Assembly: GCA_021800745.1 (NCBI GenBank)
Contig: JAJYYS010000032.1
Span: forward strand, 1-12,695
DNA length: 12,695 bases
Direction: 5' to 3'
Source: a bacterium
GTDB taxonomy: Bacteria > SZUA-79 > Acidulodesulfobacterales > Acidulodesulfobacteraceae
The notes beneath the pieces were generated by a model. It was not told the DNA's origin. It did no database searches and saw only the letters and a list, made by a program, of their open reading frames with translations. Positions 1,253-12,695 of the stretch are shown here, one piece after another; position 1 is the stretch's first letter; every line of letters begins with the position of its first letter. A program made the position numbers and the translations under genes.

Positions 1253-2296
1253 TTACCTGTTTTTTACCGCATATGTATAAGCGTTCATCGCCGCGGCGGC
1301 GCCTTCGGTAATAGAATCCGAAATAGCCTTGGGTCCGGTGCATGCGCCCGCGAGAAAAATGCCCGCCTTATTCGACTTAAATGGCGACAGCGTAATGTTT
1401 TCAGGTTTTAAAAATCCGTGTTCGTCGAGTTCGATACCAAGTTTGCTTGATATTTCCGGCGACTGGGGTCCGCCTTCCATGCCGGAAGCCAGAACTACCA
1501 TATCGAACGGGATTTCGAACGGTCCCCTTAAAAGCGTGTCTTCGCCTTTGCATATAACCGTGTTATCCGGTCCGGAGGTGATTTCGGCAACTCTGCCTTT
1601 AACTATCTGCACGTCATGCTCCTCCATAGCCTGCCAGTATAAATCCTCAAAAAAACCGTAAGTCCTAATGTCCATATAAAATATATATGCTTCGCAGTCC
1701 GGAAAATGCTCCCTCATTTCAATAGCCTGTTTTACGGAGACGGTACAGCAGACTCTGGAACAATACTGGTTCCCTACATGTCTGTCCCTTGAACCGACGC
1801 ACAGAATAAAAGCTACTTTTTTAGGCGGCTTCCCGTTTGAAGGTCTTACGAAATTATTCTCGCCCATCATTCTTTCGAGGTCTTTTATATCTATGACGTC
1901 GTCGAACAGCTGATAAGAATATTTTGCGTCCCTTGCCGGGTCGAAATGCTCGAAACCAGTTGCCACTATAACCGAATCGAATGTTTTCTTTTCGCTTCCG
2001 TCCGCAGATTTTATAGTAACGTCGAATTTTTTGCCGTTTTCTTTAAAATCAGAAATTTCCGAAGAATAATAAACTTTGATGCCGCCGCCAGCTTCCGCCT
2101 TTTTAATCAGCTCTCCTATTACGTTATCGGCGGGCTGCATATCCGGGAACAAAAATTTATATTTGAATTTTTTAGGGTTGCCTCCGAGAAACGAATCTCT
2201 TTCCACTAAAGCTACGTTAACTCCCAATTCGGAAAGCATCACCGCCGCGTTTAAACCTGCCGGACCTCCGCCGACCACTAAAATATTTTCAGACAT
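1253..2296 (-). CDS. hdrA: sHdrA, FAD- and iron-sulfur-containing subunit of the sulfur-oxidising Hdr-like complex
   Basis: Seen: 347 residues from the chosen ATG. An N-terminal dinucleotide-binding motif G9-x-G11-x-x-G14 (VVGGGPAG) is followed by an acidic strand end (VER). An ATG-type FAD loop lies near residue 113, and a C-terminal GACTGPKAISDSITEGA segment (about 317-333) closes the flavin site. Cysteines C166, C179, C183 and C184 (CVGSRD...YCSRVCC) form the HdrA cluster region. The protein is short, lacking the extra ferredoxin domains of methanogen HdrA, as expected for the sHdr type. Start choice: an ATG at 2302 overlaps the Shine-Dalgarno directly (GGAGGATG), whereas the ATG at 2296 has GGAGG at six-base spacing, so 2296 is preferred. 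Known: sHdrA is the flavoprotein hub of the cytoplasmic complex that oxidises protein-bound sulfane sulfur. A 161-base gap containing palindromic repeats separates it from hdrB1. Confidence 0.93.
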   Translation of the reverse strand: MSENILVVGGGPAGLNAAVMLSELGVNVALVERDSFLGGNPKKFKYKFLFPDMQPADNVIGELIKKAEAGGGIKVYYSSEISDFKENGKKFDVTIKSADGSEKKTFDSVIVATGFEHFDPARDAKYSYQLFDDVIDIKDLERMMGENNFVRPSNGKPPKKVAFILCVGSRDRHVGNQYCSRVCCTVSVKQAIEMREHFPDCEAYIFYMDIRTYGFFEDLYWQAMEEHDVQIVKGRVAEITSGPDNTVICKGEDTLLRGPFEIPFDMVVLASGMEGGPQSPEISSKLGIELDEHGFLKPENITLSPFKSNKAGIFLAGACTGPKAISDSITEGAAAAMNAYTYAVKNR

Positions 2297-2350
2297 AAAC
2301 ATCCTCCATTAAATCGCCGTGTTATAAAATTAATTAATCTTTATATTTTT

Positions 2351-2428
2351 GTCATTCCTGCATATCTTTTTGCCTGCATAATTGTCAACGCACGCCGTTG
2401 ACGCCGGCAAAGATGGCAGGAATCCAGT
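2351..2428. repeat. Compound palindromic interspersed repeat, copy 1 (hdrB1-hdrA gap)
   Basis: The ends are GTCATTCCTGC and GCAGGAATCCAG, the arms also found in the copies at 2435 and 7477. Here the arms are extended: ATTCCTGC-ATATCTTTTTGCC pairs imperfectly with GGCAAAGATGGCAGGAAT. The centre holds a second perfect inverted repeat, GTCAACG (2384-2390) and CGTTGAC (2396-2402), with a 5-base loop. The result is a nested hairpin of about 78 bases inside an operon. On the minus strand the inner arm also supplies a perfect TTGACA (2383-2388), but no good -10 box follows at the right distance. Confidence 0.8.
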
Positions 2429-2434
2429 CCTTTT

Positions 2435-2462
2435 GTCATTCCTGCGTAGGCAGGAATCCAGT
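2435..2462. repeat. Palindromic interspersed repeat, copy 2 (abuts hdrB1 stop)
   Basis: GTCATTCCTGC-GTAG-GCAGGAATCCAGT forms an 8-base perfect stem (ATTCCTGC/GCAGGAAT) with a 4-base loop. It ends one base before the hdrB1 stop codon (2464-2466). This is the compact form of the copy at 2351. It lacks a U-run, so it is more likely a REP/MITE-like repeat or mRNA-processing hairpin than a classic terminator. Confidence 0.85.
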
Positions 2463-2463
2463 T

Positions 2464-3666
2464 TTAACTTTTCGGATACTCGTATAAATTAACGGTTTTA
2501 CCGCCCGCTTTAAGCTCTTCGAGATAGGCGTTATATTCTTCTTCCGATTTCTTCCAGTCGATTCCCATTTTTTCGCATAGCGGTCTCCAATCCGTCGTAT
2601 GCCATTGAAGCTGGACGATTTTAAAAACGTCCGCGCCGCAGGCTAATGCCGCAAACATAACGTCCGCCATAACGGGAACCTGTTCGGTATAGCCCATAGC
2701 TTTTCCTATCCACTGGTTCTTGTCTAACGTCGTAGTGCATCCCGTATCCTGCGTAATGCAAACGTCGGAATGGGCCTCCCTGACCATAGGCCTTATTTTT
2801 CTGTCCATTACGAAAGACCTCGACGCTTCCCTTTCCGTCAATATATGTCTGAAACCGAAACCGCAGCAGTCGTACCAAGTCGAATAATCGGCCACCTGCG
2901 CGCCGAGAGCAAGCGCGACGCCCGTAGAAACCGCCGTTCTTTTTCCCGCATATATATCTTTGTCGTAAATGCAGTCTTCCGGAATCATTTTATAGGTATG
3001 GCAGGCGGGATGAACGGTCGCTATAATATTGCTTAAGTCGTATTTTTTTAACTTTGCTATTTCAAAACGCATAACGTGGACCCATTCGCTGTAATGTACG
3101 ATATATTCGGGGATGACCAGTTCCCTGCCTATCTTGTGCATAATCCTTCTGACCTCGTCCCTAAGCTCTTTATATTCTACGAGCATATTTCGCATTTCTT
3201 TATAATCGCCGAACGTAGTGGCGCAGTGAAACAGCGGAAATAAGCCTAATTCGTATGCCCTGTGCCAGTTTCTCACGGCTACCGCCGCAAGCCCTACCGG
3301 ATTAGACGTGGCGGAACCGTGATAATTCCAGGCGGTGCAGGAGGTCTGATTTCTCTCGTCCACGTATTCCAAGCCTAACTGATTCATAAACCACAGAAGC
3401 GAAACGGGATAGCCCGGAATATTGCCGCACTGCCCGCAGGATTTATGATGCCATATTTTATTTGTAGGAATTTTTTTCTTCCAGCCGAATAAAGTATCAG
3501 CCTCTATAGCCTTATTCTCGTCTTTAATATGTATGACCTTGACCTCGCCTTTTGCCTCAAGCTCGAGAAGCTGTTCGTGAATATCTTCGAGTTTTCTACC
3601 CGCGGCGTGTATATAATCGGATTTTACGTTTGCAAGACCTAGCCTGTTGCTGATTTCCATAGCCAT
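2464..3666 (-). CDS. hdrB1: sHdrB1, CCG-domain subunit of the sulfur-oxidising Hdr-like complex
   Basis: Seen: 400 residues with two cysteine-rich CCG-type regions. The first contains C77-x-x-C80 (SCGQCG), C110 (TSCTAW) and C148 (HCATTFGDY). The second contains C222 (HPACHTY), the adjacent pair C267-C268 followed by Gly (WYDCCGFGF), then C303 and C310 (ITQDTGCTTT). No signal peptide or membrane segment is present, so it is cytoplasmic. The ATG at 3666 is preceded by AAGGAG eight to nine bases upstream. Known: HdrB CCG domains bind non-cubane [4Fe-4S] clusters that do disulfide/persulfide chemistry. In sHdr, the two B subunits are thought to contact the sulfur-loaded carrier. Context: 44 bp downstream of hdrC1; the C-terminal end touches a palindromic repeat. 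Calling it B1 rather than B2 follows from its place between hdrC1 and hdrA. Confidence 0.92.
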   Translation of the reverse strand: MAMEISNRLGLANVKSDYIHAAGRKLEDIHEQLLELEAKGEVKVIHIKDENKAIEADTLFGWKKKIPTNKIWHHKSCGQCGNIPGYPVSLLWFMNQLGLEYVDERNQTSCTAWNYHGSATSNPVGLAAVAVRNWHRAYELGLFPLFHCATTFGDYKEMRNMLVEYKELRDEVRRIMHKIGRELVIPEYIVHYSEWVHVMRFEIAKLKKYDLSNIIATVHPACHTYKMIPEDCIYDKDIYAGKRTAVSTGVALALGAQVADYSTWYDCCGFGFRHILTEREASRSFVMDRKIRPMVREAHSDVCITQDTGCTTTLDKNQWIGKAMGYTEQVPVMADVMFAALACGADVFKIVQLQWHTTDWRPLCEKMGIDWKKSEEEYNAYLEELKAGGKTVNLYEYPKS

Positions 3667-3710
3667 ATTTATGTCTCCTTATAAAAATTAAGGCATATTA
3701 CCGCCTATCG

Positions 3711-4388
3711 TCAAGAACTCCTGACGTCGTCCACTATATCCTGTATTATTTCGTAAAGCGAAGGGTCGACGGCTTCTATTATTTTAAAAACTCCGGCTTC
3801 GTCGAATATGTCGTACAGCTCTTTCATCGCTTCCGGGGCGACGTCCCACGATAAATTCGTCACCTGCAGAGTCGGCATAGGAATCGCTTTTCTTTTTGCG
3901 GCAAGGTCGGTAGAAGCATATCCTATATGAGGACCCCAGTCGGGAAAGAAATCCGGCTGTATCATATCCGGCGACAGCTGATTTCCGTATGCGGTAAGTT
4001 TTAAAAGCACCCTCGAGTAAGGCTTAAGGACTTTTCTAGCCGATTCGAAGCCTCTCCTGACGGCAATCTCCCTTAATATAGCTATAATGCCTCCGGGACT
4101 GTTCAAAAACGGACAAATCATAGCGCAGGTAAAACACTGAAAACATGCCCATATATATTCGTCCATCATCGTCCAGATAAGTTCGGGGTCTTTAGACTTC
4201 ATATTTTGAAGGACTATGCGCGGGGAAAAATCGAAAAATCTGTGGGGCGGACATCCGCCTGTACATACGCCGCAGTTTAAACATCCTCTGACATATTCTT
4301 CGTATCTGAAATCTTTTCTGGCTTCTTCGAAGATTTCTTTTTTAAATTCGGAAGGAACTATACTTACTCCATTTTCGTCATATTCCAT
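3711..4388 (-). CDS. hdrC1: sHdrC1, bis-[4Fe-4S] electron-transfer subunit
   Basis: Seen: 225 residues. Two ferredoxin motifs, C36-C39-C42-C46-Pro (CLNCGVCTGGCP) and C82-C85-C88-C92-Pro (CFQCFTCAMICP), are separated by a helical linker. A helical C-terminal half without cysteines follows. The ATG at 4388 has AGGAG with about six-base spacing. Known: HdrC links the flavin subunit to HdrB by two cubane clusters. Context: first gene of the sHdr operon here; a possible promoter lies upstream (-35 TTGACT at 4458-4463). The preceding channel gene ends 106 bases away in the same orientation, so some read-through from it is possible. The short N-terminus and operon-first position separate it from the HdrC2 at 1-427. 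Confidence 0.92.
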   Translation of the reverse strand: MEYDENGVSIVPSEFKKEIFEEARKDFRYEEYVRGCLNCGVCTGGCPPHRFFDFSPRIVLQNMKSKDPELIWTMMDEYIWACFQCFTCAMICPFLNSPGGIIAILREIAVRRGFESARKVLKPYSRVLLKLTAYGNQLSPDMIQPDFFPDWGPHIGYASTDLAAKRKAIPMPTLQVTNLSWDVAPEAMKELYDIFDEAGVFKIIEAVDPSLYEIIQDIVDDVRSS

Positions 4389-4494: not shown

Positions 4495-5931
4495 TCAAAT
4501 AGTATCTTCTATATTTTCGACGTTTTCCATTTCGGAGGTTTTTGTCCTGCCACCTCCGCCCATCATATCGAGTTCGTATGAAGAAGACGAAAAATGTTCG
4601 TCGGGAGCGGGGGACGCCGCATGTAAAATCTGTAGATACTGGAGAATAGTAACGAAAAATAAGCCGCCTATCATATTGCCTATGATAGTCAAAGGAACGT
4701 AGCGGTAAAGCCATGGAAGATATGAAATATGGGAACCGGTATTGATTGCTATTAAAATTTCAGACGACGCCACGACTATGTGGCTGAAAGAATTTAGATA
4801 TATCATAAAGCCGACGACCCATATAATAAAAATTCTTGCCAGAGTTCCGCTCGAAGCTATCAAAAGCCACGTCATAAGCGTTATCAGCCAGCCGGCAAAA
4901 ATAGCGCTTAAAACCATTACGAAAGGCGTTCTGCTCATATAGTTGTCGGCAATACCGTGTATATGCCCGACTACAAACTGAGGAACAATCTGATTTAACG
5001 AACCGGCTATTACGAGGGCAAAAATAAAAATTCCCGCCATATTTCCTATCAGCGTCAGCGACCATAATTTTAAAAGGTCGGAGATTTTACCTCTTTTAGC
5101 AATGACGGCGGTTACCGGGACTAAAAAATTTTCCGTAAAAAGTTCGCTCTTGCCTATCATTAAAAACATAAAACCTATAGGAAAAAACAGCGCCCCGAAT
5201 ATTTTGGAGATGTTTGCCCCGACGAAAGGAGCCGTCGCTCCGGCGACATAAGAAGACGCTATTATGCCGAATGTAACGTTCATGCCGGCTATAAGCCCGG
5301 ACATAGACATTTCGAGCCAGCTTCTCTGAAGTCTTGCCTGTCCTACCTCGACGGATGCCTTAAAAATTTCGGAAGCCTCTTTGCCGCCCGGTTTTTCTAT
5401 GCCCCTAATGGCTCCGATACGGGCTTTTGTGGATTCTAAAATTTCGTTTATCCTTTTTGACAAATATAAAGAATGATGTATTTCTTCGGCAAGATTATTT
5501 TCTAAAAGCGCCCTCACGCCGGGGTCTTCGATGACCTCCAATCCGGCGGTATAATCGTTAATTGCGTTTTCTTCTATTTTTAAATCTATTCTGAGCATAT
5601 CGAGAGGGGCGGAAACCTGATGGGAAGCCTCGCTGACCCCTTTCTGCGCTTCCCTTATCTCTTGAAGGTGCTTAGGCGTTCCTCCAAGTTCCGTTATTTT
5701 TTCCCTGATGTTTATAATATGCCCGCTTTCGGTAGAGGCAAAAGATTTTAACGCCTGAACCAAAATTGGGTCATTAAGGGTTTTTGTCTGCTCGATATAT
5801 AAATCCCTTCCAGCCACTTCGGCCGCAAGATATTTTTGGAGCCAGGCTATCGTATCTTGAACGGCTTTGGTATTTTTTAAATTCCCCGAACCGCTTTCGT
5901 TTTCATCGTTTTTTAAATATAAATCCGTCAT
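4495..5931 (-). CDS. Formate/nitrite transporter (FNT, YfdC-like) with N-terminal ferritin-like diiron domain
   Basis: Seen: 478 residues from the ATG at 5931. An in-frame TTG at 5950-5952 adds seven residues but falls inside the promoter. Residues about 20-170 form a four-helix ferritin-like domain with a full ligand set: E38, E68-x-x-H71 (ESGH), E120/E121 (IEENAI) and E149/E150 with H152/H153 (EEIHH). Residues about 205-440 form the channel, with roughly six hydrophobic segments, the FNT signature ELFTEN (263-268) typical of the YfdC branch, and FSHIVVASSE carrying the conserved pore His (H384). A glycine/serine-rich acidic tail follows. Known: FNT pentamers pass small monovalent anions such as formate, nitrite or hydrosulfide. 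Inferred: the diiron head may gate the channel or process an oxidant or metal at its cytoplasmic mouth. The sHdr operon directly downstream makes a sulfur anion plausible but unproven. No Shine-Dalgarno is seen; the promoter spacing suggests a leaderless mRNA. Confidence 0.88.
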   Translation of the reverse strand: MTDLYLKNDENESGSGNLKNTKAVQDTIAWLQKYLAAEVAGRDLYIEQTKTLNDPILVQALKSFASTESGHIINIREKITELGGTPKHLQEIREAQKGVSEASHQVSAPLDMLRIDLKIEENAINDYTAGLEVIEDPGVRALLENNLAEEIHHSLYLSKRINEILESTKARIGAIRGIEKPGGKEASEIFKASVEVGQARLQRSWLEMSMSGLIAGMNVTFGIIASSYVAGATAPFVGANISKIFGALFFPIGFMFLMIGKSELFTENFLVPVTAVIAKRGKISDLLKLWSLTLIGNMAGIFIFALVIAGSLNQIVPQFVVGHIHGIADNYMSRTPFVMVLSAIFAGWLITLMTWLLIASSGTLARIFIIWVVGFMIYLNSFSHIVVASSEILIAINTGSHISYLPWLYRYVPLTIIGNMIGGLFFVTILQYLQILHAASPAPDEHFSSSSYELDMMGGGGRTKTSEMENVENIEDTI

Positions 5932-5940
5932 AATATTTAA

Positions 5941-5969
5941 ATTATATATCAATTTATCTTATTTAACAA
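5941..5969 (-). promoter_or_regulatory. Promoter of the ferritin-FNT gene, predicted leaderless
   Basis: TTGTTA (5964-5969), a 17-base spacer and a perfect TATAAT (5941-5946) lie on the minus strand. Only nine bases separate the -10 box from the ATG at 5931, so transcription should begin two or three bases before the start codon. No Shine-Dalgarno is present, in agreement. Confidence 0.75.
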
Positions 5970-7504: not shown

Positions 7505-8431
7505 CTATTTAACTATAAGTATCGAACATGGAAGCGCGCTTATTATCCTTTCGGCGGTGCTTCCGAAAATAATTTCCTTTAGGCCTTCCCTGTCTCTTCC
7601 CTTAAAACCCAGAATTAACAGTTTCTTTCCGGTTTCTTCCATAAAATCGGATATTTCTTTGCAAGGCGCGCCCTTTCTGACCTCTATTTCCAAGTTTGAT
7701 TTTTCTTTTGCGAACCTGTAGTTAAGGCCGCGCATTACCGACTCGAATTTTTCGGACAGGCTTTTCTCGTAATTTTCTATTTCGCCGATTCTTGAATCTT
7801 TCAGCCCCTTAATTAATTTTTCGTCGATAATATGCAAAATAGTAAATATCTTGATTACGTCTTCCGGAACTTTTAATATTAAGGGCAGGGCTTTAAGCGA
7901 AAACTCCGAAAAATCGGTCGCAAAAACGACATCGTCGAAAATGTTTCTGCAGCTTGTTTTCCTGTCGTTTTTAAAGTCGCTGGAAGAATGAAACAAAACC
8001 CGCCTCATAACGAGAACGGGTTTTTCTATTTTTATTATAATATCGTAAAGAGGAGAACCGTAAAACGAAAAATAACCCTTGGGCTTTCCGCCAGCTTTTT
8101 TATCGAGGACTACGAAATCAATATTTTCCGCCTTCGCTTCTTCCGCGATTTCTTCGGCAATATTGCCTATCCTGATAACGTATCTGACGCCGAAACCTGA
8201 TTTTTCTAAGTATTTTTTAATATCTTCAAGTTTAATCTCCGCAAACCTTCTTATCTTTTCTTCGTCTTCTTTTTTATAGACGGAATAAAGGCTGTGCTGA
8301 AAAATTGCGGGGTCTATAACGTGTATCAGGACTATTTCTTTTAAGCCGAGCTTCGAATAGTTCGCAAAACAGTCGAGATTTTCGTAATAAAAATCACCGA
8401 AATTTATTGCGTAAAGTACGGTATTCAGCAT
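7505..8431 (-). CDS. Tandem-domain universal stress protein (UspA family)
   Basis: Seen: 308 residues, two Usp alpha/beta domains. Domain 1 is about 4-145: VLYAINFGD start, VVLD strand, a degenerate nucleotide loop containing FYGS, ending KPVLVMRR. Domain 2 is about 164-308: VVFATDFSE with the ATP-contacting Asp at 173, ILHIIDE, then LLILGFKGRD...FGSTAERI, ending PCSILIVK. The domain-2 phosphate loop, G275-x2-G278-x11-G290-Ser, is two residues longer than the usual G-x2-G-x9-G(S/T). Domain 1 seems to have lost the first glycines. Known: such proteins bind ATP or other ligands and support survival under stress. The ATG at 8431 is preceded by GAGGGG at about five-base spacing. It is last in a minus-strand pair with the pilin-like gene, 52 bases downstream of it. 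No specific substrate can be assigned. Confidence 0.87.
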   Translation of the reverse strand: MLNTVLYAINFGDFYYENLDCFANYSKLGLKEIVLIHVIDPAIFQHSLYSVYKKEDEEKIRRFAEIKLEDIKKYLEKSGFGVRYVIRIGNIAEEIAEEAKAENIDFVVLDKKAGGKPKGYFSFYGSPLYDIIIKIEKPVLVMRRVLFHSSSDFKNDRKTSCRNIFDDVVFATDFSEFSLKALPLILKVPEDVIKIFTILHIIDEKLIKGLKDSRIGEIENYEKSLSEKFESVMRGLNYRFAKEKSNLEIEVRKGAPCKEISDFMEETGKKLLILGFKGRDREGLKEIIFGSTAERIISALPCSILIVK

Positions 8432-8483
8432 AAATGCCCCTCAAATTTTATAAAGTTTTGCCATGTTTATTTTTCCCATAATT

Positions 8484-9083
8484 TTAGCCGTTAGGGAGTT
8501 CGGTTTCGACGTAAATGCCGGTACCTCCGCCTCCGACAGGGCAAGAACTACTACCGCCGCCTTTTATTACAACCTCCGCCGTAACTTCCCTTTCCGTTCC
8601 GCCCGCAAAGCCGTTGGAAGTAATGACGTAGTAAGCGCAGTTCCCGCCTCCGCCTCCGCCTCCGCTTAATTGCCCCTCTACCGCGCAAAACGTCGGCGTA
8701 TAATTAGCACCTGGAGCAACCGTTTTCAAATTGCCCTGCAAATTGCCGGAAAGATATTGAATAGCAGTTAGGGTCCCGCTCACTCTCGGCGGCAGTACAG
8801 GACTTGACGGACAGCCCGGTAGCGGTAGCCCTGTAGAAAAAGTGCCGCCATTTACCGGTTCCAGTTCCCAAAGCGTTATCTCCACCCCCGACTTTGCGGC
8901 ATACTTCGCCGCCGCGCTCGTCAGGTTAGACCTCGAAGTTATATCCCCGCTTGACGTCAGATAAGCGAAAATAGACCCCGCCAGCCCCAGCACTATAATA
9001 ATTATAATCGCCAGAATTATCGAAATACCCTTATCCGAACCTATAATCGTCTTTTTAAAATATCTTACCGCCGATAAAAACAT
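8484..9083 (-). CDS. PilX-like type IV minor pilin / pilus assembly protein (orphan)
   Basis: Seen: 199 residues. A short basic leader ends in SDKG, followed by one hydrophobic helix (about 20-42, ISIILAIIIIIVLGLAGSIFAYL). This is a prepilin-peptidase-type cut after G19. The +5 residue is Leu, not Glu, as in PilX-type minor pilins. A helical segment with an AAAKYAAKSGVE pattern follows, then a Gly/Ser/Pro-rich, Cys-containing globular region (C91, C133, C149, C181) including a seven-glycine run. Known: PilX-like proteins prime or decorate type IV pili and secretion pseudopili. Odd: no pilin partners (fimT, pilV, pilW, pilY1) are in the window. Instead, a decayed vapC remnant starts about 30 bases upstream, as if the upstream pilus genes were displaced. 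TATAAT at 9093-9098 sits nine bases before the ATG, and no Shine-Dalgarno is seen. Confidence 0.7.
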   Translation of the reverse strand: MFLSAVRYFKKTIIGSDKGISIILAIIIIIVLGLAGSIFAYLTSSGDITSRSNLTSAAAKYAAKSGVEITLWELEPVNGGTFSTGLPLPGCPSSPVLPPRVSGTLTAIQYLSGNLQGNLKTVAPGANYTPTFCAVEGQLSGGGGGGGNCAYYVITSNGFAGGTEREVTAEVVIKGGGSSSCPVGGGGTGIYVETELPNG

Positions 9084-9205: not shown

Positions 9206-9601
9206 TCAAATTTTGTATAGTTCTAATCCCGAAATTAATTCAAAATGTTTATCTAAGGTAAAAACGGAAAAGTTGTTTTCTATAGCCAATGCTCCGATTA
9301 AAATATCGGAAAATGGAACGGTAAAGCCTTTCTTTTTTATGTCTGAAGAAATTTCCGCGGATTTTTGCCATATAATTTTATTTACCTCTACATACGGTAA
9401 ATTTGATAAAATCTCTTTAATCTTTAATTTTTCCGGCTCGGATTTAATTCCCTGCAATAATTCAAATAAAACGACGCCGCAAACCTCAGCCAAATCTGCG
9501 ATAAGAAGCAGTTCTAGATTATTGCTTACCGAAGAATTTGCCCTGAAAAATTCAATCCAGACGCTTGTATCGACCAAGACGCGCTTATGTTTATTTTTCA
9601 A
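9206..9601 (-). CDS. vapC: VapC family PIN-domain toxin (ribonuclease), module 1
   Basis: Seen: 131 residues with the PIN-domain acidic set D11 (VLVDTSVWIEFF), E47 (FELLQG), D99 (PFSDILIGA) and D117 (TLDKHFELI), all present, so the enzyme looks intact. Length is typical for the family. Known: VapC toxins are magnesium-dependent endoribonucleases that cut tRNA or rRNA and are neutralised by the cognate VapB. Context: the start overlaps the end of vapB1 by 11 bases, so the two are translationally coupled and share the vapB1 promoter. It replaces the 5' part of the vapC remnant lying just downstream. The RNA target cannot be told from the sequence. Confidence 0.92.
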   Translation of the reverse strand: MKNKHKRVLVDTSVWIEFFRANSSVSNNLELLLIADLAEVCGVVLFELLQGIKSEPEKLKIKEILSNLPYVEVNKIIWQKSAEISSDIKKKGFTVPFSDILIGALAIENNFSVFTLDKHFELISGLELYKI

Positions 9602-9824
9602 TAAACTTTCCTCTCTCGGATTGAGAATCTATTTCCGACTTTTCTTCCGCTTCCCAATCATAATCTATATTAACTTTTCCTTTTAGGGCAAGAAGCTCCG
9701 TTATTTTTTTTTGCCTTATATATTCCTTCATTGTTTTAACAATAGCTTTCGTTTTTGATTTTTCACCTGAAATTTTTTGGACTTCGCTAATCAAATCTTC
9801 AGGTATGTTTAACGTGGTGCGCAT
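9591..9824 (-). CDS. vapB: VapB family antitoxin, module 1
   Basis: Seen: 77 residues. The N-terminal MRTTLNIPEDLISEVQKISG followed by an alpha-helical KTKAIVKTMKEYIRQKK segment is the ribbon-helix-helix DNA-binding fold of VapB antitoxins. The C-terminal part (LKGKVNIDYDWEAEEK) is the usual acidic toxin-wrapping tail with an aromatic/aspartate motif. The ATG at 9824 has AAGGAG about nine bases upstream. Known: VapB neutralises VapC and represses its own promoter. Context: its 3' end overlaps vapC1; its own near-perfect promoter lies at 9851-9879, so expression does not depend on vapBC2 upstream. Confidence 0.9.
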   Translation of the reverse strand: MRTTLNIPEDLISEVQKISGEKSKTKAIVKTMKEYIRQKKITELLALKGKVNIDYDWEAEEKSEIDSQSERGKFIEK

Positions 9825-9897: not shown

Positions 9898-9914
9898 GGA
9901 GTTAAGTGCCCCCT
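9886..9914 (-). terminator. Candidate Rho-independent terminator of vapBC2
   Basis: On the minus strand AGGGGG (9909-9914) pairs with CCCCCT (9894-9899) around a nine-base loop. GCGTTTTCC follows. The stem starts within the vapC2 TAG stop codon. The U-run is short and begins three bases after the stem, so efficiency may be modest. The vapC remnant at 9112 has lost the partner arm. Confidence 0.55.
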
Positions 9915-10311
9915 AATATTCTTTTAAACCTTCGACGACCGATGCAATTTCGGTATAATCCTTATCGTCGTGCAGTAAAAATAAATTATTTTCTATCGCC
10001 GTTTCTGCAATCAGCAAATCAATAGTGCTTCTCGGCGTAATTCCTTTTTTTCTGCACAGATAATACATCTTTGCCGCATTCTCGTACGACCTAGTTCCGT
10101 AAAGCAATTCATAAAACTTTTGACTGCTCAGATATCCGTTTAACAGATTAAATTCTTTCTCGGCAGACGCGCCCTGCAATACTTCCTGATATATAAAATT
10201 ATTTATCCCGAAAGGCGTTCCAGTTTCTAATATTCCTTCAAATTTTTTGGTTTTCGGATTATTTACGCCCTTAAAATAATTTATCAGAACCGAAGTATCT
10301 ATCAAAATCAA
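9913..10311 (-). CDS. vapC: VapC family PIN-domain toxin (ribonuclease), module 2
   Basis: Seen: 132 residues. The acidic residues D5 (LIDTSVLINYF), E43 (IYQEVLQG), D98 (STIDLLIAETA) and D116/D118 (LHDDKDYTEIA) complete the PIN active site. The start is a TTG at 10311, one base after the vapB2 TAA (TAAATTG). No ATG precedes the conserved LIDTSV strand, and no strong Shine-Dalgarno is seen, so translation is probably coupled to vapB2. Known: VapC is an RNase toxin inhibited by VapB. It differs clearly from module 1 in sequence, so the two are separate acquisitions and not a recent duplication. Its last 25 codons and 3' flank are duplicated in decayed form at 9102-9191. Confidence 0.92.
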   Translation of the reverse strand: MILIDTSVLINYFKGVNNPKTKKFEGILETGTPFGINNFIYQEVLQGASAEKEFNLLNGYLSSQKFYELLYGTRSYENAAKMYYLCRKKGITPRSTIDLLIAETAIENNLFLLHDDKDYTEIASVVEGLKEY

Positions 10312-10312
10312 T

Positions 10313-10522
10313 TTATTTTACCCGCCTGCCTTCCCTCATAGACTTATAATCGTATCCTTCCGCAAATTTAATCTTTCCTTTTAATTCGGTAAGATTCTTC
10401 CTCTTGTAATTTTCTACAAATTCTTTTAAAGCTAAATTGACTAACTCTTTTTTGGTCTTTACATTTGCCAGCTTCATAGCTTCTTCGACAAGCAAATCGT
10501 TGAGTACGATATTAGTTCTCAT
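10313..10522 (-). CDS. vapB: VapB family antitoxin, module 2
   Basis: Seen: 69 residues. MRTNIVLNDLLVEEAMKLA plus the helical KTKKELVNLALKEFVENYKRK is the VapB ribbon-helix-helix N-terminus. LTELKGKIKFAEGYDYKSMREGR is the characteristic toxin-binding tail. The ATG at 10522 follows a GGGGTG ribosome-binding site at about five-base spacing. Known: a labile antitoxin and autorepressor. The promoter just upstream has a perfect inverted repeat over its -10 box, which fits autoregulation. It is separated from vapC2 by one base. Confidence 0.9.
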   Translation of the reverse strand: MRTNIVLNDLLVEEAMKLANVKTKKELVNLALKEFVENYKRKNLTELKGKIKFAEGYDYKSMREGRRVK

Positions 10523-10535
10523 TTTTACACCCCAT

Positions 10536-10571
10536 GATACACATTATATCGTGTATCTATGTTCTTTTCAA
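10536..10571 (-). promoter_or_regulatory. vapBC2 promoter with palindromic operator over the -10 box
   Basis: TTGAAA (10566-10571), a 17-base spacer and a perfect TATAAT (10543-10548) lie on the minus strand. GATACAC and GTGTATC (10536-10542 and 10551-10557) form a perfect 7-base inverted repeat with an 8-base centre that contains the -10 box. A VapB-VapC complex bound here would block RNA polymerase directly. Confidence 0.85.
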
Positions 10572-10599
10572 CTCTTTTTCGGTTTTATTAATTATGCGT

Positions 10600-10866
10600 T
10601 TATTTATCTGTCCCGCTTACGGCATTATTTTCTTCCGCTTTGGCCCGCATACGCGCCTGCAGGATTTCGTTATTTTTCCTCTTTATTTCCATTTCGGTTA
10701 AAACGCTTTCCGAATTTAAAATCAAAACCCTGCCGAATAATTCTTCCATTTCTTTTCTTTGGTTCAGAACGCCGTTTATCCCGTCTATAAACTCCTGAAA
10801 GCTGATTTTACTCTTACCCTGTTTTAATTTAGTTTTCCTTTTCCTGCGCAGTTTTCTCCCGTCCAT
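10600..10866 (-). CDS. Small basic protein of unknown function
   Basis: Seen: 88 residues. The N-terminus is strongly basic (MDGRKLRRKRKTKLKQGKSK), followed by a predicted helical, charged region with heptad-like hydrophobics (FQEFIDGINGVLNQRKEMEELFGRVLILNSESVLTEMEI) and a basic/acidic tail. There are no cysteines, no membrane segment and no signal peptide. The ATG at 10866 has AAAGGAGG about ten bases upstream, which supports translation. I do not recognise the family. A nucleic-acid-binding or coiled-coil role would suit the composition but is a guess. Context: between vapBC2 and a remnant insertion sequence, preceded by about 180 bases of very AT-rich DNA. Confidence 0.55.
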   Translation of the reverse strand: MDGRKLRRKRKTKLKQGKSKISFQEFIDGINGVLNQRKEMEELFGRVLILNSESVLTEMEIKRKNNEILQARMRAKAEENNAVSGTDK

Positions 10867-10953
10867 AAAAACCCTGCCTCCTTTAATTTAATTTTTTATA
10901 ATTTATTAATCAATAATTATAATTTACATTAAAGTGCGAGTTTTTATTTATAT

Positions 10954-10986
10954 CATAAATTTCGTTGCAGGATTATGAAATTTATG
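10954..10986. repeat. Long inverted repeat in the AT-rich spacer
   Basis: CATAAATTTC (10954-10963) and GAAATTTATG (10977-10986) are perfect 10-base inverted copies separated by 13 bases. They lie upstream of the 88-residue gene. It is a possible operator or the end of a small element. No U-run follows, so it is not a terminator. Confidence 0.7.
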
Positions 10987-10995
10987 TTTCAATTA

Positions 10996-11022
10996 TGTTA
11001 AATTTTTGTTACGTTTTTGTTA
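10996..11022 (+). repeat. Three TGTTA motifs at exact 11-base spacing
   Basis: TGTTA occurs at 10996, 11007 and 11018. The last two are extended to TTTTTGTTA. The period is about one helical turn, so the motifs face the same side of the DNA. It could be a cooperative binding site or chance in AT-rich DNA. Confidence 0.4.
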
Positions 11023-11042
11023 AAATTTAGGAAAACGCAGGG
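11023..11042. repeat. 20-base direct repeat, copy B
   Basis: AAATTTAGGAAAACGCAGGG is identical to 9878-9897. This copy directly precedes the probable left boundary of the IS110-family remnant. Confidence 0.85.
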
Positions 11043-11061
11043 AGGGACAGGGAATAAGAGA

Positions 11062-11067
11062 TATAAT
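11062..11067 (+). promoter_or_regulatory. Lone -10 box in the IS110 left end
   Basis: A perfect TATAAT has no acceptable -35 hexamer 16-18 bases upstream (AGGGAG there). In IS110-group elements the -35 can come from the right end when the circle closes, which would explain a -10 alone. Transcription would start near 11074. Confidence 0.45.
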
Positions 11068-11073
11068 AAGACG

Positions 11074-11240
11074 AAAAAATTTTAGTTTTAGCAGTAAGGC
11101 TGGCAGCAGAAAGGAATAAATCAAGAACTTATAAGTTCGTGTGTCAGCATTTTTCGCTGCCGGTTATATATTAAATAAATCTCGAACAGTTGCCTGGGCT
11201 TATAAGCCCGAATCATTGCAAGAATGAGTTTATTTAAAAT
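11074..11240 (+). ncRNA. Candidate IS110 bridge RNA (two-domain structured RNA)
   Basis: Domain 1: CTGGCAGC (11100-11107) pairs with GCTGCCGG (11156-11163), extended by GAAA/TTTC. Then comes an internal loop (11113-11124 and 11139-11151) and a hairpin on the perfect palindrome GAACTTATAAGTTC (11125-11138). Domain 2: AAATAAA-t-CTC (11173-11183) pairs with GAGTTTATTT (11226-11235). Then come loop segments, TTGC/GCAA (11190-11193/11218-11221) and a hairpin on GGGCTTATAAGCCC (11196-11209). Both domains share the same apical core CTTATAAG with different stem bases, and the region lies between a -10 box and the transposase start. Known: IS110-group elements encode in this place a bridge RNA with two internal loops that pair with donor and target DNA. 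Inferred: this is such an RNA, now likely non-functional in cis because the transposase is truncated. I could not assign the guide strands. Confidence 0.5.
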
Positions 11241-11254
11241 TAACGGAGGTATTT

Positions 11255-11326
11255 ATGGAAGAATCTTTTTTTGGAATCGACGTATCGAAAGCTGACACCT
11301 TTATTTCAAAGCTCTTCCGTTTTTAA
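11255..11326 (+). pseudogene. Truncated IS110-family transposase (N-terminal fragment)
   Basis: The ATG at 11255 with GGAGG six bases upstream reads MEESFFGIDVSKADTFISKLFRF, then TAA at 11324. FGIDVSK with its first catalytic-site Asp is the opening beta-strand of the RuvC-like DEDD domain in IS110 transposases, which normally run to roughly 300-450 residues. The other three acidic residues and the serine-containing C-terminal domain are absent, so no recombinase is made. The last few codons and the stop probably come from the flanking DNA. Confidence 0.75.
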
Positions 11327-11365
11327 TTTTATTGCGTTTGCAATCATAATACTGCGTCAGCAGGA

Positions 11366-12695
11366 TTAGAATGCAAAGAATATGCCTGTCTGAAATTGGT
11401 CAAATTCCGACACATTAGTTAAATCGTAACCGGCATACAAGTGCGCATTATAGGATAGATTATATTCAGCCATAAGCGTTAAATCATTTTTTATTCCTTC
11501 AACGCAAGTTGGCCAACCTGAGGTACCGCCATATAAATTTTGATTAGAACATGTTGATGGAGTGGAATTAAATGCATCCTGCGAATTCTTATGCGTGTAT
11601 GAATACGTAGCATAATCTGCAACAAGCATCAATCCATTTCCAACATTAGGCATTAAGTAACGGCCGTATGCTTCAAACGTGCTGTAGCCATTGCTTGTAT
11701 CAGTAACACCAGTAGGTAACGCTGCACCATCATTGGCATAAGGATTACTGTCGCTCTGAACCATATAGGTTAAGCCAAGTTCGTAAATATCGTTGGCAAG
11801 GTCAACATCGACGCCGTTAACTAAAACACGGTTAGTCCAAGTATTACCGCTTGCGGTAATTGGCTCTGCAATCGTTGCGCCGTAGTATCCAAGTTCAAAC
11901 TGGCCCATAGGTGTAGGTGCATATTCTTTTAACTGATAAGAATATTCCATAGCATTTGATACACTATTATTATATAAGGCTCGACTAAATAATTTCGGGG
12001 AACAGTAAAATTGCATGGTTCGAGTATCTAATTTCGGGGAACAGTAATATTGTATAGCATTTAATACACCATTATTATTAGGATTGACGGTTCTCACTCC
12101 AGAACCCGTATCGTTCGTAACCGTTACTTTATACCACAAATGATAACCCGGCGTTCCGTAGAGAGCGAAACCAGGGTTCTGACTATGAATTAATACTCCT
12201 GCTTCGCCGTCATAGCCTACCGAGAGTCCTTGTATAGCCCCTACCGGTCCATTCGTCGGGAATATAACGTTCTGTCTGTAAAAATAAGGGCTTGCGGTTG
12301 TAAGCTGACCAACCTTTAAATTTAATAAATGAGCAGGCAAACCAAATTCAGAACCTACTCCGTTAAGAGACGCCCAAACCTGGTCTTTTCCAAAACCTCC
12401 CCCTGCCATTATATGCATATGCATATAAAAAGACAGCGAATTCGCCAACGGGGTGTATATAGGGCTTGCACCGCCTACAACAAAATTAACTTTTGCATTA
12501 AACTGATCGGTATGTGCACTCACATTTTCATTAGTGGTATGTTTATACCAGATATTCGAACTCATCATGATCGGTATCGGCCATGGATTCGGAAGGCTTA
12601 AACCTTCGGTAATCTGCGTTGCGTCCGCAGGAGTTCCTTCAGTGCCCGGAAGCCTGAAGCCGTTTCTCCAGAATGCCCTTCCGAACGGGTTAAGG
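11366..12695 (-). CDS. Outer-membrane beta-barrel-like protein (partial, runs off the right edge)
   Basis: Seen: the frame is open from the right edge to TAA at 11366, at least 442 residues. The ATG pair near 12568 is internal, since in-frame coding (NPFGRAFWRNGFRLPGT...) continues upstream without a stop. There are alternating hydrophobic/polar strands with aromatic girdles (LSFYMHMHIMAGG, FELGYYGATI, LMLVADYATYSYTHK, LTLMAEYNLSYNAHLYAGYDL). The C-terminus TGIFFAF ends in Phe, as outer-membrane barrels do for assembly by the BAM complex. The upstream FGRAFWRNGFRLPG segment resembles the start of cytochrome-associated porin-like proteins, but no haem motif is visible. Odd: a 39-base in-frame tandem repeat at 11969-12046 inside a larger duplication, likely in a surface loop. 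Gene flanked downstream by the IS110 remnant. Function, whether porin or electron-transfer conduit, is undetermined. Confidence 0.65.
   Translation of the reverse strand, partial: LNPFGRAFWRNGFRLPGTEGTPADATQITEGLSLPNPWPIPIMMSSNIWYKHTTNENVSAHTDQFNAKVNFVVGGASPIYTPLANSLSFYMHMHIMAGGGFGKDQVWASLNGVGSEFGLPAHLLNLKVGQLTTASPYFYRQNVIFPTNGPVGAIQGLSVGYDGEAGVLIHSQNPGFALYGTPGYHLWYKVTVTNDTGSGVRTVNPNNNGVLNAIQYYCSPKLDTRTMQFYCSPKLFSRALYNNSVSNAMEYSYQLKEYAPTPMGQFELGYYGATIAEPITASGNTWTNRVLVNGVDVDLANDIYELGLTYMVQSDSNPYANDGAALPTGVTDTSNGYSTFEAYGRYLMPNVGNGLMLVADYATYSYTHKNSQDAFNSTPSTCSNQNLYGGTSGWPTCVEGIKNDLTLMAEYNLSYNAHLYAGYDLTNVSEFDQFQTGIFFAF
11951..12080 (-). repeat. In-frame nested duplication in the barrel gene
   Basis: Outer copies at 11951-11974 and 12056-12079 (AGCATTT-ATACAC-ATTATTAT) are 105 bases apart and encode the similar NNSVSNAMEY and NNNGVLNAIQY. 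Between them lie two tandem 39-base units (11969-12007 and 12008-12046) sharing TAATTTCGGGGAACAGTA. They encode YCSPKLDTRTMQF and YCSPKLFSRALYN. All periods are multiples of three, so the frame is kept. Confidence 0.85.

What the first reader, a model, noticed from the sequence alone, without database searches (positions are those of the whole stretch)
11044..11254. Candidate bridge RNA at the left end of an IS110-family remnant
Between a lone TATAAT and the start of an IS110-type transposase fragment lie two stem - internal loop - hairpin domains. Each is capped by a perfect 14-base palindrome with the same core: GAACTTATAAGTTC at 11125 and GGGCTTATAAGCCC at 11196. The stems CTGGCAGC/GCTGCCGG and AAATAAAtCTC/GAGTTTATTT close the domains. 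This is the layout expected of IS110-group bridge RNAs (target-binding and donor-binding loops), and the length from the predicted start to the ATG (about 180 bases) fits. The 5' side of the first internal loop begins GGAATAA, which also occurs at 11051-11057 near the presumed element edge, so it could be a donor guide. That last match is short and may be chance. It would be a new bridge RNA variant with identical apical hairpins.
Basis: partly seen in the sequence, partly recalled or inferred. Interest (0 to 1): 0.78.

Follow-up and report, generated by a model that had tools for sequence, protein, structure and literature searches.

The report
Bridge RNA left by broken transposon
A decayed jumping gene has left behind the gene for its guide RNA, whose two loops still spell out the repeated DNA site that its relatives insert into and the ends of the jumping gene itself; the mechanism is already known from other bacteria, so this is a well-supported new member rather than a new kind.

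Summary
Window 11073-11291 is the left part of an IS110-group insertion sequence, with both stem-loop domains of a bridge RNA. A full copy (L002, 313-aa transposase) sits in a genome of the same genus as the nearest held genome. Comparing copies gives the ends, a CT core and the target AATAAAT-CT-GACACC, present up to 80 times per genome. All four guides match: loop 1 reads the target, loop 2 the element's own ends (the fourth match is short). Across 19 elements, own targets fit own loops better than in any of 20,000 permutations; 13 of 17 stem pairs show compensatory changes. Corrections: GGAATAA is a target guide, not a donor guide; the lone TATAAT is host DNA; the 180-base leader is a deletion product (full left end 369 bp); identical apical hairpins are not conserved. 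The window copy lost its outer left end, promoters and all but 12 transposase codons, so it is probably immobile and silent. Possible variant: this lineage's left end is about 177 nt longer than in relatives and carries a second, internal promoter-like site.

The parts
11033..11072 (+). Host: degenerate tail of the repeat that is the insertion target; left target half + core C = 11065-11072 (AATAAGAC; AATAAATC in the orthologous locus L005)
   Evidence: Alignment with the syntenic locus L005 of G011; repeat consensus from unoccupied sites
11073..11291 (+). Remnant of the left part of an IS110-group element (outer ~200 bp of the left end deleted; left boundary uncertain by a few bases)
   Evidence: 90-93% identical to L001, L002, L003 from 11075 on and to L004 from 11084 on
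11098..11165 (+). Target-binding domain of the bridge RNA (stem, internal loop, hairpin)
   Evidence: Fold z -3.81; stem covariation in 19 sequences
11115..11122 (+). Left target guide AATAAATC (identical to left target + first core base)
11125..11138 (+). Apical hairpin of the target-binding domain (GAACTTATAAGTTC)
11141..11147 (+). Right target guide GTGTCAG (reverse complement of core CT + GACAC)
11171..11237 (+). Donor-binding domain of the bridge RNA (stem, internal loop, hairpin)
   Evidence: Fold z -3.24; conserved in relatives
11186..11193 (+). Left donor guide ACAGTTGC (identical to the element's right end + first core base)
   Evidence: Right-end alignment
11196..11209 (+). Apical hairpin of the donor-binding domain (GGGCTTATAAGCCC)
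11218..11222 (+). Right donor guide GCAAG (its CAAG pairs with core CT + TG of the left end CTTGTAT; further pairing discontiguous)
11245..11249 (+). Ribosome-binding-site-like GGAGG before the transposase ATG
   Evidence: Sequence; motif recognised from memory
11255..11291 (+). First 12 codons (37 bases) of the IS110 transposase gene; the rest of the gene and the right end are deleted
   Evidence: Alignment with L001/L002; translation
11292..11305 (+). Core CT plus right target half GACACCTTTATT, where the deletion joins host DNA
   Evidence: Right-end copies; unoccupied target beside the orthologous right flank in G001

Best explanation
Window 11098-11237 is the bridge RNA gene of an IS110-group insertion sequence. 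In full copies the transposase (RuvC-like DEDD recombinase) excises the element as a circle; joining right end to left end creates a sigma70-type promoter across the core (TTGACA-17-TATAAT), and the bridge RNA is transcribed from the left end. Its first loop pairs with the target, a host repeat reading AATAAAT-CT-GACACC, and its second loop pairs with the joined ends ACAGTTG-CT-TG, so that the recombinase exchanges strands at the shared CT without duplicating the target. Shown here by sequence: the ends, the core, the target, the guide matches, the covarying stems and the junction promoter sequence. Inferred from the IS621 and ISEc21 experiments: transcription, RNA-protein binding and strand exchange. 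The window copy is a decayed insertion: it keeps both bridge RNA domains and the four guide words, but lacks the outer left end, both promoter sequences, nearly all of the transposase and the right end; it is most likely immobile and probably not transcribed.
For: Homology to an element whose transposase matches PF01548 and PF02371 and NCBIfam NF033542 'IS110 family RNA-guided transposase'. Ends from many copies: right end TTGACAAATAACACAGTTG|CTGAC in 14 of 17 aligned right-end rows; AATAAAT before CTTGTATAATAT in 16 of 17 left-end rows with a readable flank (18 rows in all). Target AATAAATCTGACACC in 26 of 30 family genomes, reversed control 0 in all 30. Order-1 Markov sequences modelled on 11075-11254: all four guide words together in 0 of 20,000 (singly 283, 86, 26 and, for the 5-base RDG word, 6,805). 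Guide-target permutation over 19 elements: own sum 246, permuted mean 208.3, maximum 228, 0 of 20,000. Stem covariation. Junction promoter: 12 of 12 consensus bases in L002 at the 17-bp register. Site context: L005 left, G001 (L124) right.
Against: No RNA or recombination data for this lineage. In only 9 of 19 elements did the own target beat all 18 others, and only 10 of 19 best matches have the LTG-RTG spacing of 24-26. The RDG-donor match is short (CAAG/CTTG, then one G-T and gaps), and its word is common by chance. With the five close copies alone only 1 of 39 pairs changes on both sides. The 17-pair structure was derived from the alignment on which it was counted. No Rfam family matches. 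L005 lacks the right target half, so no clean empty site was found.
Confidence: 0.93

Rival explanations
1. The remnant is not dead: its bridge RNA is still made (for example by read-through) and guides the recombinase of full copies in trans, or decoys it.
For: Both domains and the four guide words are intact although the gene behind them is gone. L001 and L003 also keep left end plus bridge RNA without a transposase gene, and still have the internal promoter-like site. IS621 bridge RNA works in trans in the laboratory (PMC11208160, passage seen).
Against: The window copy has lost both promoter sequences, and no plus-strand promoter-like site was found in 10900-11400. The donor ends are gone, so it cannot move itself. 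Recent decay explains intact guides equally well.
Confidence: 0.1
2. The hairpins are an RNA leader that regulates transposase translation (riboswitch-like or attenuator) rather than a guide RNA.
For: They lie directly upstream of the ribosome-binding-site-like GGAGG and the ATG.
Against: Loop words match target and donor ends, and vary with the target in relatives; no terminator-like site in L002 1400-1917; no Rfam match. A dual role is not excluded.
Confidence: 0.03
3. The two palindromes are DNA features (palindromes acting as DNA at transposon ends or in repeats), not RNA.
For: Both are perfect 14-base DNA palindromes in the window; a hairpin repeat is common beside the target in these genomes.
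Against: L004 breaks the DNA symmetry but keeps the stems; single-stranded folding and compensatory changes extend to the outer stems; they lie inside the element, not at its ends.
Confidence: 0.02

Closest known systems
IS621 (IS110 group) bridge RNA, Durrant et al. 2024, PMC11208160 (passages and sections 5, 6, 12, 18 seen)
   Same: Left-end RNA upstream of a DEDD recombinase; two internal-loop domains, target first, donor second; [quoted passage not shown] CT core; promoter formed at the right-end/left-end junction.
   Different: Guides and target differ (AATAAAT-CT-GACACC). The left end of the full copy is 369 bp with a second promoter-like site inside; the IS621 left-end RNA is about 177 nt and starts from the junction promoter.
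ISEc21 seekRNA (IS110 family), Siddiquee et al. 2024, PMC11187229 (outline and section 12 seen)
   Same: Upstream non-coding region makes the RNA; bottom-strand target match lies 5' of the top-strand match; circle forms a promoter; no target duplication.
   Different: ISEc21 targets a site in IS3-family transposase genes; here the target is an abundant short repeat of the host family.
IS110-type elements in other lineages with transposases 40-49% identical (L104, L106, L145-L171)
   Same: Left end CTTGTAT, right end ACAG/ACAA..|CT, similar donor loop, LTG-RTG spacing of 24-26 in 10 of 19 including L002.

Membership tests
IS110-group bridge RNA / element | Recombinase with DEDD RuvC-like PF01548 and C-terminal PF02371 | tested here: met
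   Met by the full copy L002 (NF033542 at 219.7 bits against a cut-off of 140). Not met by the window copy itself, which keeps 12 codons.
IS110-group bridge RNA / element | Structured RNA in the left end, upstream of the recombinase gene | tested here: met
   (structure by prediction; RNA itself not shown).
IS110-group bridge RNA / element | Two stems with internal loops, supported by covariation | tested here: met
   13 of 17 consensus pairs with a change on both sides; 92.5% of cells paired vs 34-48% when slid.
IS110-group bridge RNA / element | 5' stem-loop before the two loop domains (IS621 consensus) | tested here: inconclusive
   The L002 left end folds into several structures upstream; no covariation test made there.
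IS110-group bridge RNA / element | First loop matches target, second loop matches donor ends, core included | tested here: met
   the RDG match is short.
IS110-group bridge RNA / element | Insertion at a core dinucleotide without target duplication | tested here: met
   LT|CT|left end and right end|CT|RT compared with unoccupied LT-CT-RT sites; not from one occupied/empty pair.
IS110-group bridge RNA / element | Circle junction creates a sigma70-type promoter | tested here: met
   TTGACA-17-TATAAT, 12 of 12, in L002; both halves are absent from the window copy.
IS110-group bridge RNA / element | RNA is made, binds the recombinase and directs recombination | not testable with these tools
   Needs RNA-seq and recombination assays.
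IS1111 group | Guide RNA in the right end, long right end | tested here: not met
   The RNA lies in the left end; left end 369 bp, right end 130 bp in L002 (counted).
IS1111 group | Sub-terminal inverted repeats of 7-17 bp | not tested
   Not scanned.

The most novel reading that the evidence does not exclude
In this lineage the left end has gained about 177 nt carrying a second sigma70-type promoter (TTGAAA-18-TATAAT, TG before the -10) inside the element, so that the bridge RNA can be made from integrated copies and not only from the excised circle. That would uncouple guide RNA supply from excision and let left-end remnants such as L001 and L003 go on making guide RNA for other copies.
Probability: 0.35. 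Interest if true: 0.55.

Novelty: new member of a known kind. Interest (0 to 1): 0.42.

Why it matters
It gives a natural bridge RNA with guides, ends and target read from sequence, in MAG-type genomes of a little-studied bacterial family, plus 23 further elements with readable ends and different targets, useful for learning guide rules. It also shows an IS110-group element whose target is an abundant short repeat (up to 80 exact sites per genome), and a lineage with an added internal promoter-like site that could change when the guide RNA is made.

Tried and rejected
Rfam search of the window and of L002: nothing above gathering; one chance match in L002 (mir-335, E 0.75). First idea that the left end lies at the internal ..TTG|CTATAATG.. 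was dropped once more copies showed the left end at AATAAAT|CTTGTATAAT. First idea that the site AGAATAAAAGCTGACACC upstream in L004 was the target in register was replaced by the AATAAATCTGACACC sites. Widening by the search for related loci gave 2 loci only; the phylum of G338 held 3 genomes and nothing new. A first claim that most unoccupied targets follow a hairpin was recounted: 21 of 40 have GGGAGT just before the site and 21 of 40 a perfect 6-bp hairpin arm nearby, against 181 of 800 control positions. Papers: searches; I saw in these listings no title or abstract start about an internal left-end promoter or transposase-less bridge RNAs, but only PMC11208160 (passages, sections 5, 6, 12, 18) and PMC11187229 (outline, section 12) were opened, so this is no proof of absence.

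Rows dropped: of 34 relatives' loci, 28 showed CTTGTA(T) upstream at 110-293 bases and none at 294-420; keeping distances of 170-300 and requiring a right-end motif left 23 (L164, at 110, was dropped by that limit). The ATG was extrapolated from the protein alignment. With L002 that is 24; 3 had no left flank in the contig and 2 were duplicates, leaving 19 for the permutation test. Alignment A2 holds 19 sequences that I chose: window, L002, L001 and 16 relatives; L003, L004 and 8 of the 23 two-ended relatives (L105, L148, L156, L159, L167, L168, L169, L171) were left out, while L033, which has no readable right end, was included.

Full report
Observation. The region 11096-11240 folds into two stem-internal loop-hairpin domains far better than shuffles (z -4.03, 0 of 200).

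What it belongs to. The stretch from 11075 to about 11295 is 90-93% identical, over all or part of its length, to segments in four genomes of the same family (L001-L004), and a 49-base part to a fifth (L006). One of these, L002 in genome G015 (same genus as the nearest held genome G001), is a full element with a 313-aa transposase that matches PF01548 and PF02371 and NCBIfam 'IS110 family RNA-guided transposase'. It was the only full-length hit at E <= 1e-20 among 30 family genomes; the only other hit was a 51-residue piece in G012.

Ends, core and target. The right end reads TTGACAAATAACACAGTTG|CT|GAC in 14 of 17 right-end rows (GACACC in 12 of these 14), with different DNA after it; the left end reads AATAAAT|CT|TGTATAATAT in 16 of 17 left-end rows with a readable flank. 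The predicted unoccupied site AATAAATCTGACACC was then searched: 26 of 30 family genomes have it, up to 80 times (G005), and the reversed control never occurs. Of 40 distinct examples in held loci, 31 read AATAAATAAAT before the core and 21 have GGGAGT shortly upstream, often as the 3' arm of a hairpin; the inserted copies show the same left flank. I call this repeat REP-like by recollection; no call named it. So insertion is at CT, without duplication. From core to core the full element is 1,441 bp: left end 369, right end 130 (counted). G005 has 7 left-end and 7 right-end flanks at or near contig ends, as expected of a collapsed multi-copy element.

The window copy. The flank up to about 11072 aligns with a syntenic locus in G011 (L005: window 7689-8523 and 10338-11088 matched), where AATAAATC stands opposite window 11065-11072. 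The right flank from 11347 matches G001 (L124), where an unoccupied target lies just beside it. L005 itself lacks the right target half, so no single clean empty site was found. The simplest reading is that the element inserted in a target of this kind and then lost the outer left end and everything between transposase codon 12 and the right core. The lone TATAAT is host DNA (TAAAAT in L005), and the 4 promoter-like sites found in 10900-11400 are all on the minus strand.

Guides. In the window: AATAAATC 11115-11122 and GTGTCAG 11141-11147 in the first loop; ACAGTTGC 11186-11193 and GCAAG 11218-11222 in the second (AATAAATC also occurs at 11174, in the second stem). Orientation follows the IS621 rule (PMC11208160, passages, section 6). 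None of 20,000 order-1 Markov sequences of the same make-up held all four words; singly they occurred 283, 86, 26 and 6,805 times, so the RDG word alone means little. The RTG of L004 has one mismatch. The RDG match is short and then discontiguous, as the paper describes for IS621.

Relatives. In 395 genomes of the phylum of G090, 24 hold relatives at E <= 1e-70. Of 34 loci examined, 23 show both ends under my patterns: left end CTTGTAT, right end ACAG/ACAA..|CT. Over 19 elements (18 relatives and L002) own targets fit own loops better than permuted ones (246 against mean 208.3, sd 4.3; 0 of 20,000). L104 matches 16 of 16, L002 15 of 16. Against this: the own target beat all others in 9 of 19 only, many relatives share CTAAC in the right half, and 9 of 19 best matches lack the spacing of 24-26. 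The spacing is 25 in L104, L147, L149, L163, L002 and in the window's best match to L002's target (15 of 16). Consensus stems over 19 sequences: 13 of 17 pairs have a change on both sides, 0 of 500 shuffles reach that, and sliding the partners lowers paired cells from 92.5% to 34-48%; the structure came from the same alignment. With the five close copies alone only 1 of 39 pairs shows a change on both sides.

Promoters. Read at a fixed 17-bp register across the circle junction, L002 has 12 of 12 consensus bases and the 23 relatives 4-11; a TTG-type -35 stands there in 20 of 24, but not in L104, L147, L149 or L158. The left ends of this lineage also hold an internal TTGAAA-18-TATAAT in 7 of 7 copies whose homology reaches it; of the other 11 left-end rows 8 run out of contig and 3 diverge before it. 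It scores 11 of 12, reached in 28 of 3,000 Markov sequences of the left end; promoter-like sites at 9 of 12 are as common in shuffles (mean 2.2) as here (1). Relatives' left ends are 175-293 bp (median 204, n=23) against 369, and in the in-register relatives the LTG lies near base 54 rather than base 231: an extension of about 177 nt. That it drives the bridge RNA from integrated copies is inference.

Verdict. A bridge RNA gene in an IS110-group remnant: new member of a known kind, with a possible variant feature in its full-length kin.

Noticed in passing
window 4495-5952 (-): One frame encodes a ferritin-like domain (PF00210, E 3.7e-8) joined to a formate/nitrite transporter (PF01226, E 9.5e-48); an unusual-looking fusion.
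   Followed up: no
window 9206-9824 and 9913-10522 (-): Two adjacent VapB-like antitoxin / PIN-domain toxin pairs.
   Followed up: no
window 10990-11028: An AT-rich motif of about 39 bases just left of the finding recurs widely: 29 of 30 family genomes have a match and most of the listed places cover this motif. Its role is unknown.
   Followed up: partly
window 11978-12055: 39-base tandem repeat (2 copies, 85% alike) inside the open frame 11366-12694 on the minus strand.
   Followed up: no
L087 1552-1601, L141, L144, L142: Pieces like the outermost ~50-85 bases of the element's left end also stand alone upstream of other open frames, perhaps as captured promoters or as the source of the extension.
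   Followed up: partly
L087 581-620, L088, L089, L090: Solo right-end pieces of 36-44 bases without the rest of the element.
   Followed up: no
L006 1356-1427: A 24-base tandem repeat (ATACATTCGGTGACGATAAAATCG, three copies) inside the left-end extension of one copy in G005.
   Followed up: no
window 1253-4388 (-): Genes resembling heterodisulfide reductase subunits HdrA, HdrB and HdrC, all below NCBIfam cut-offs.
   Followed up: no
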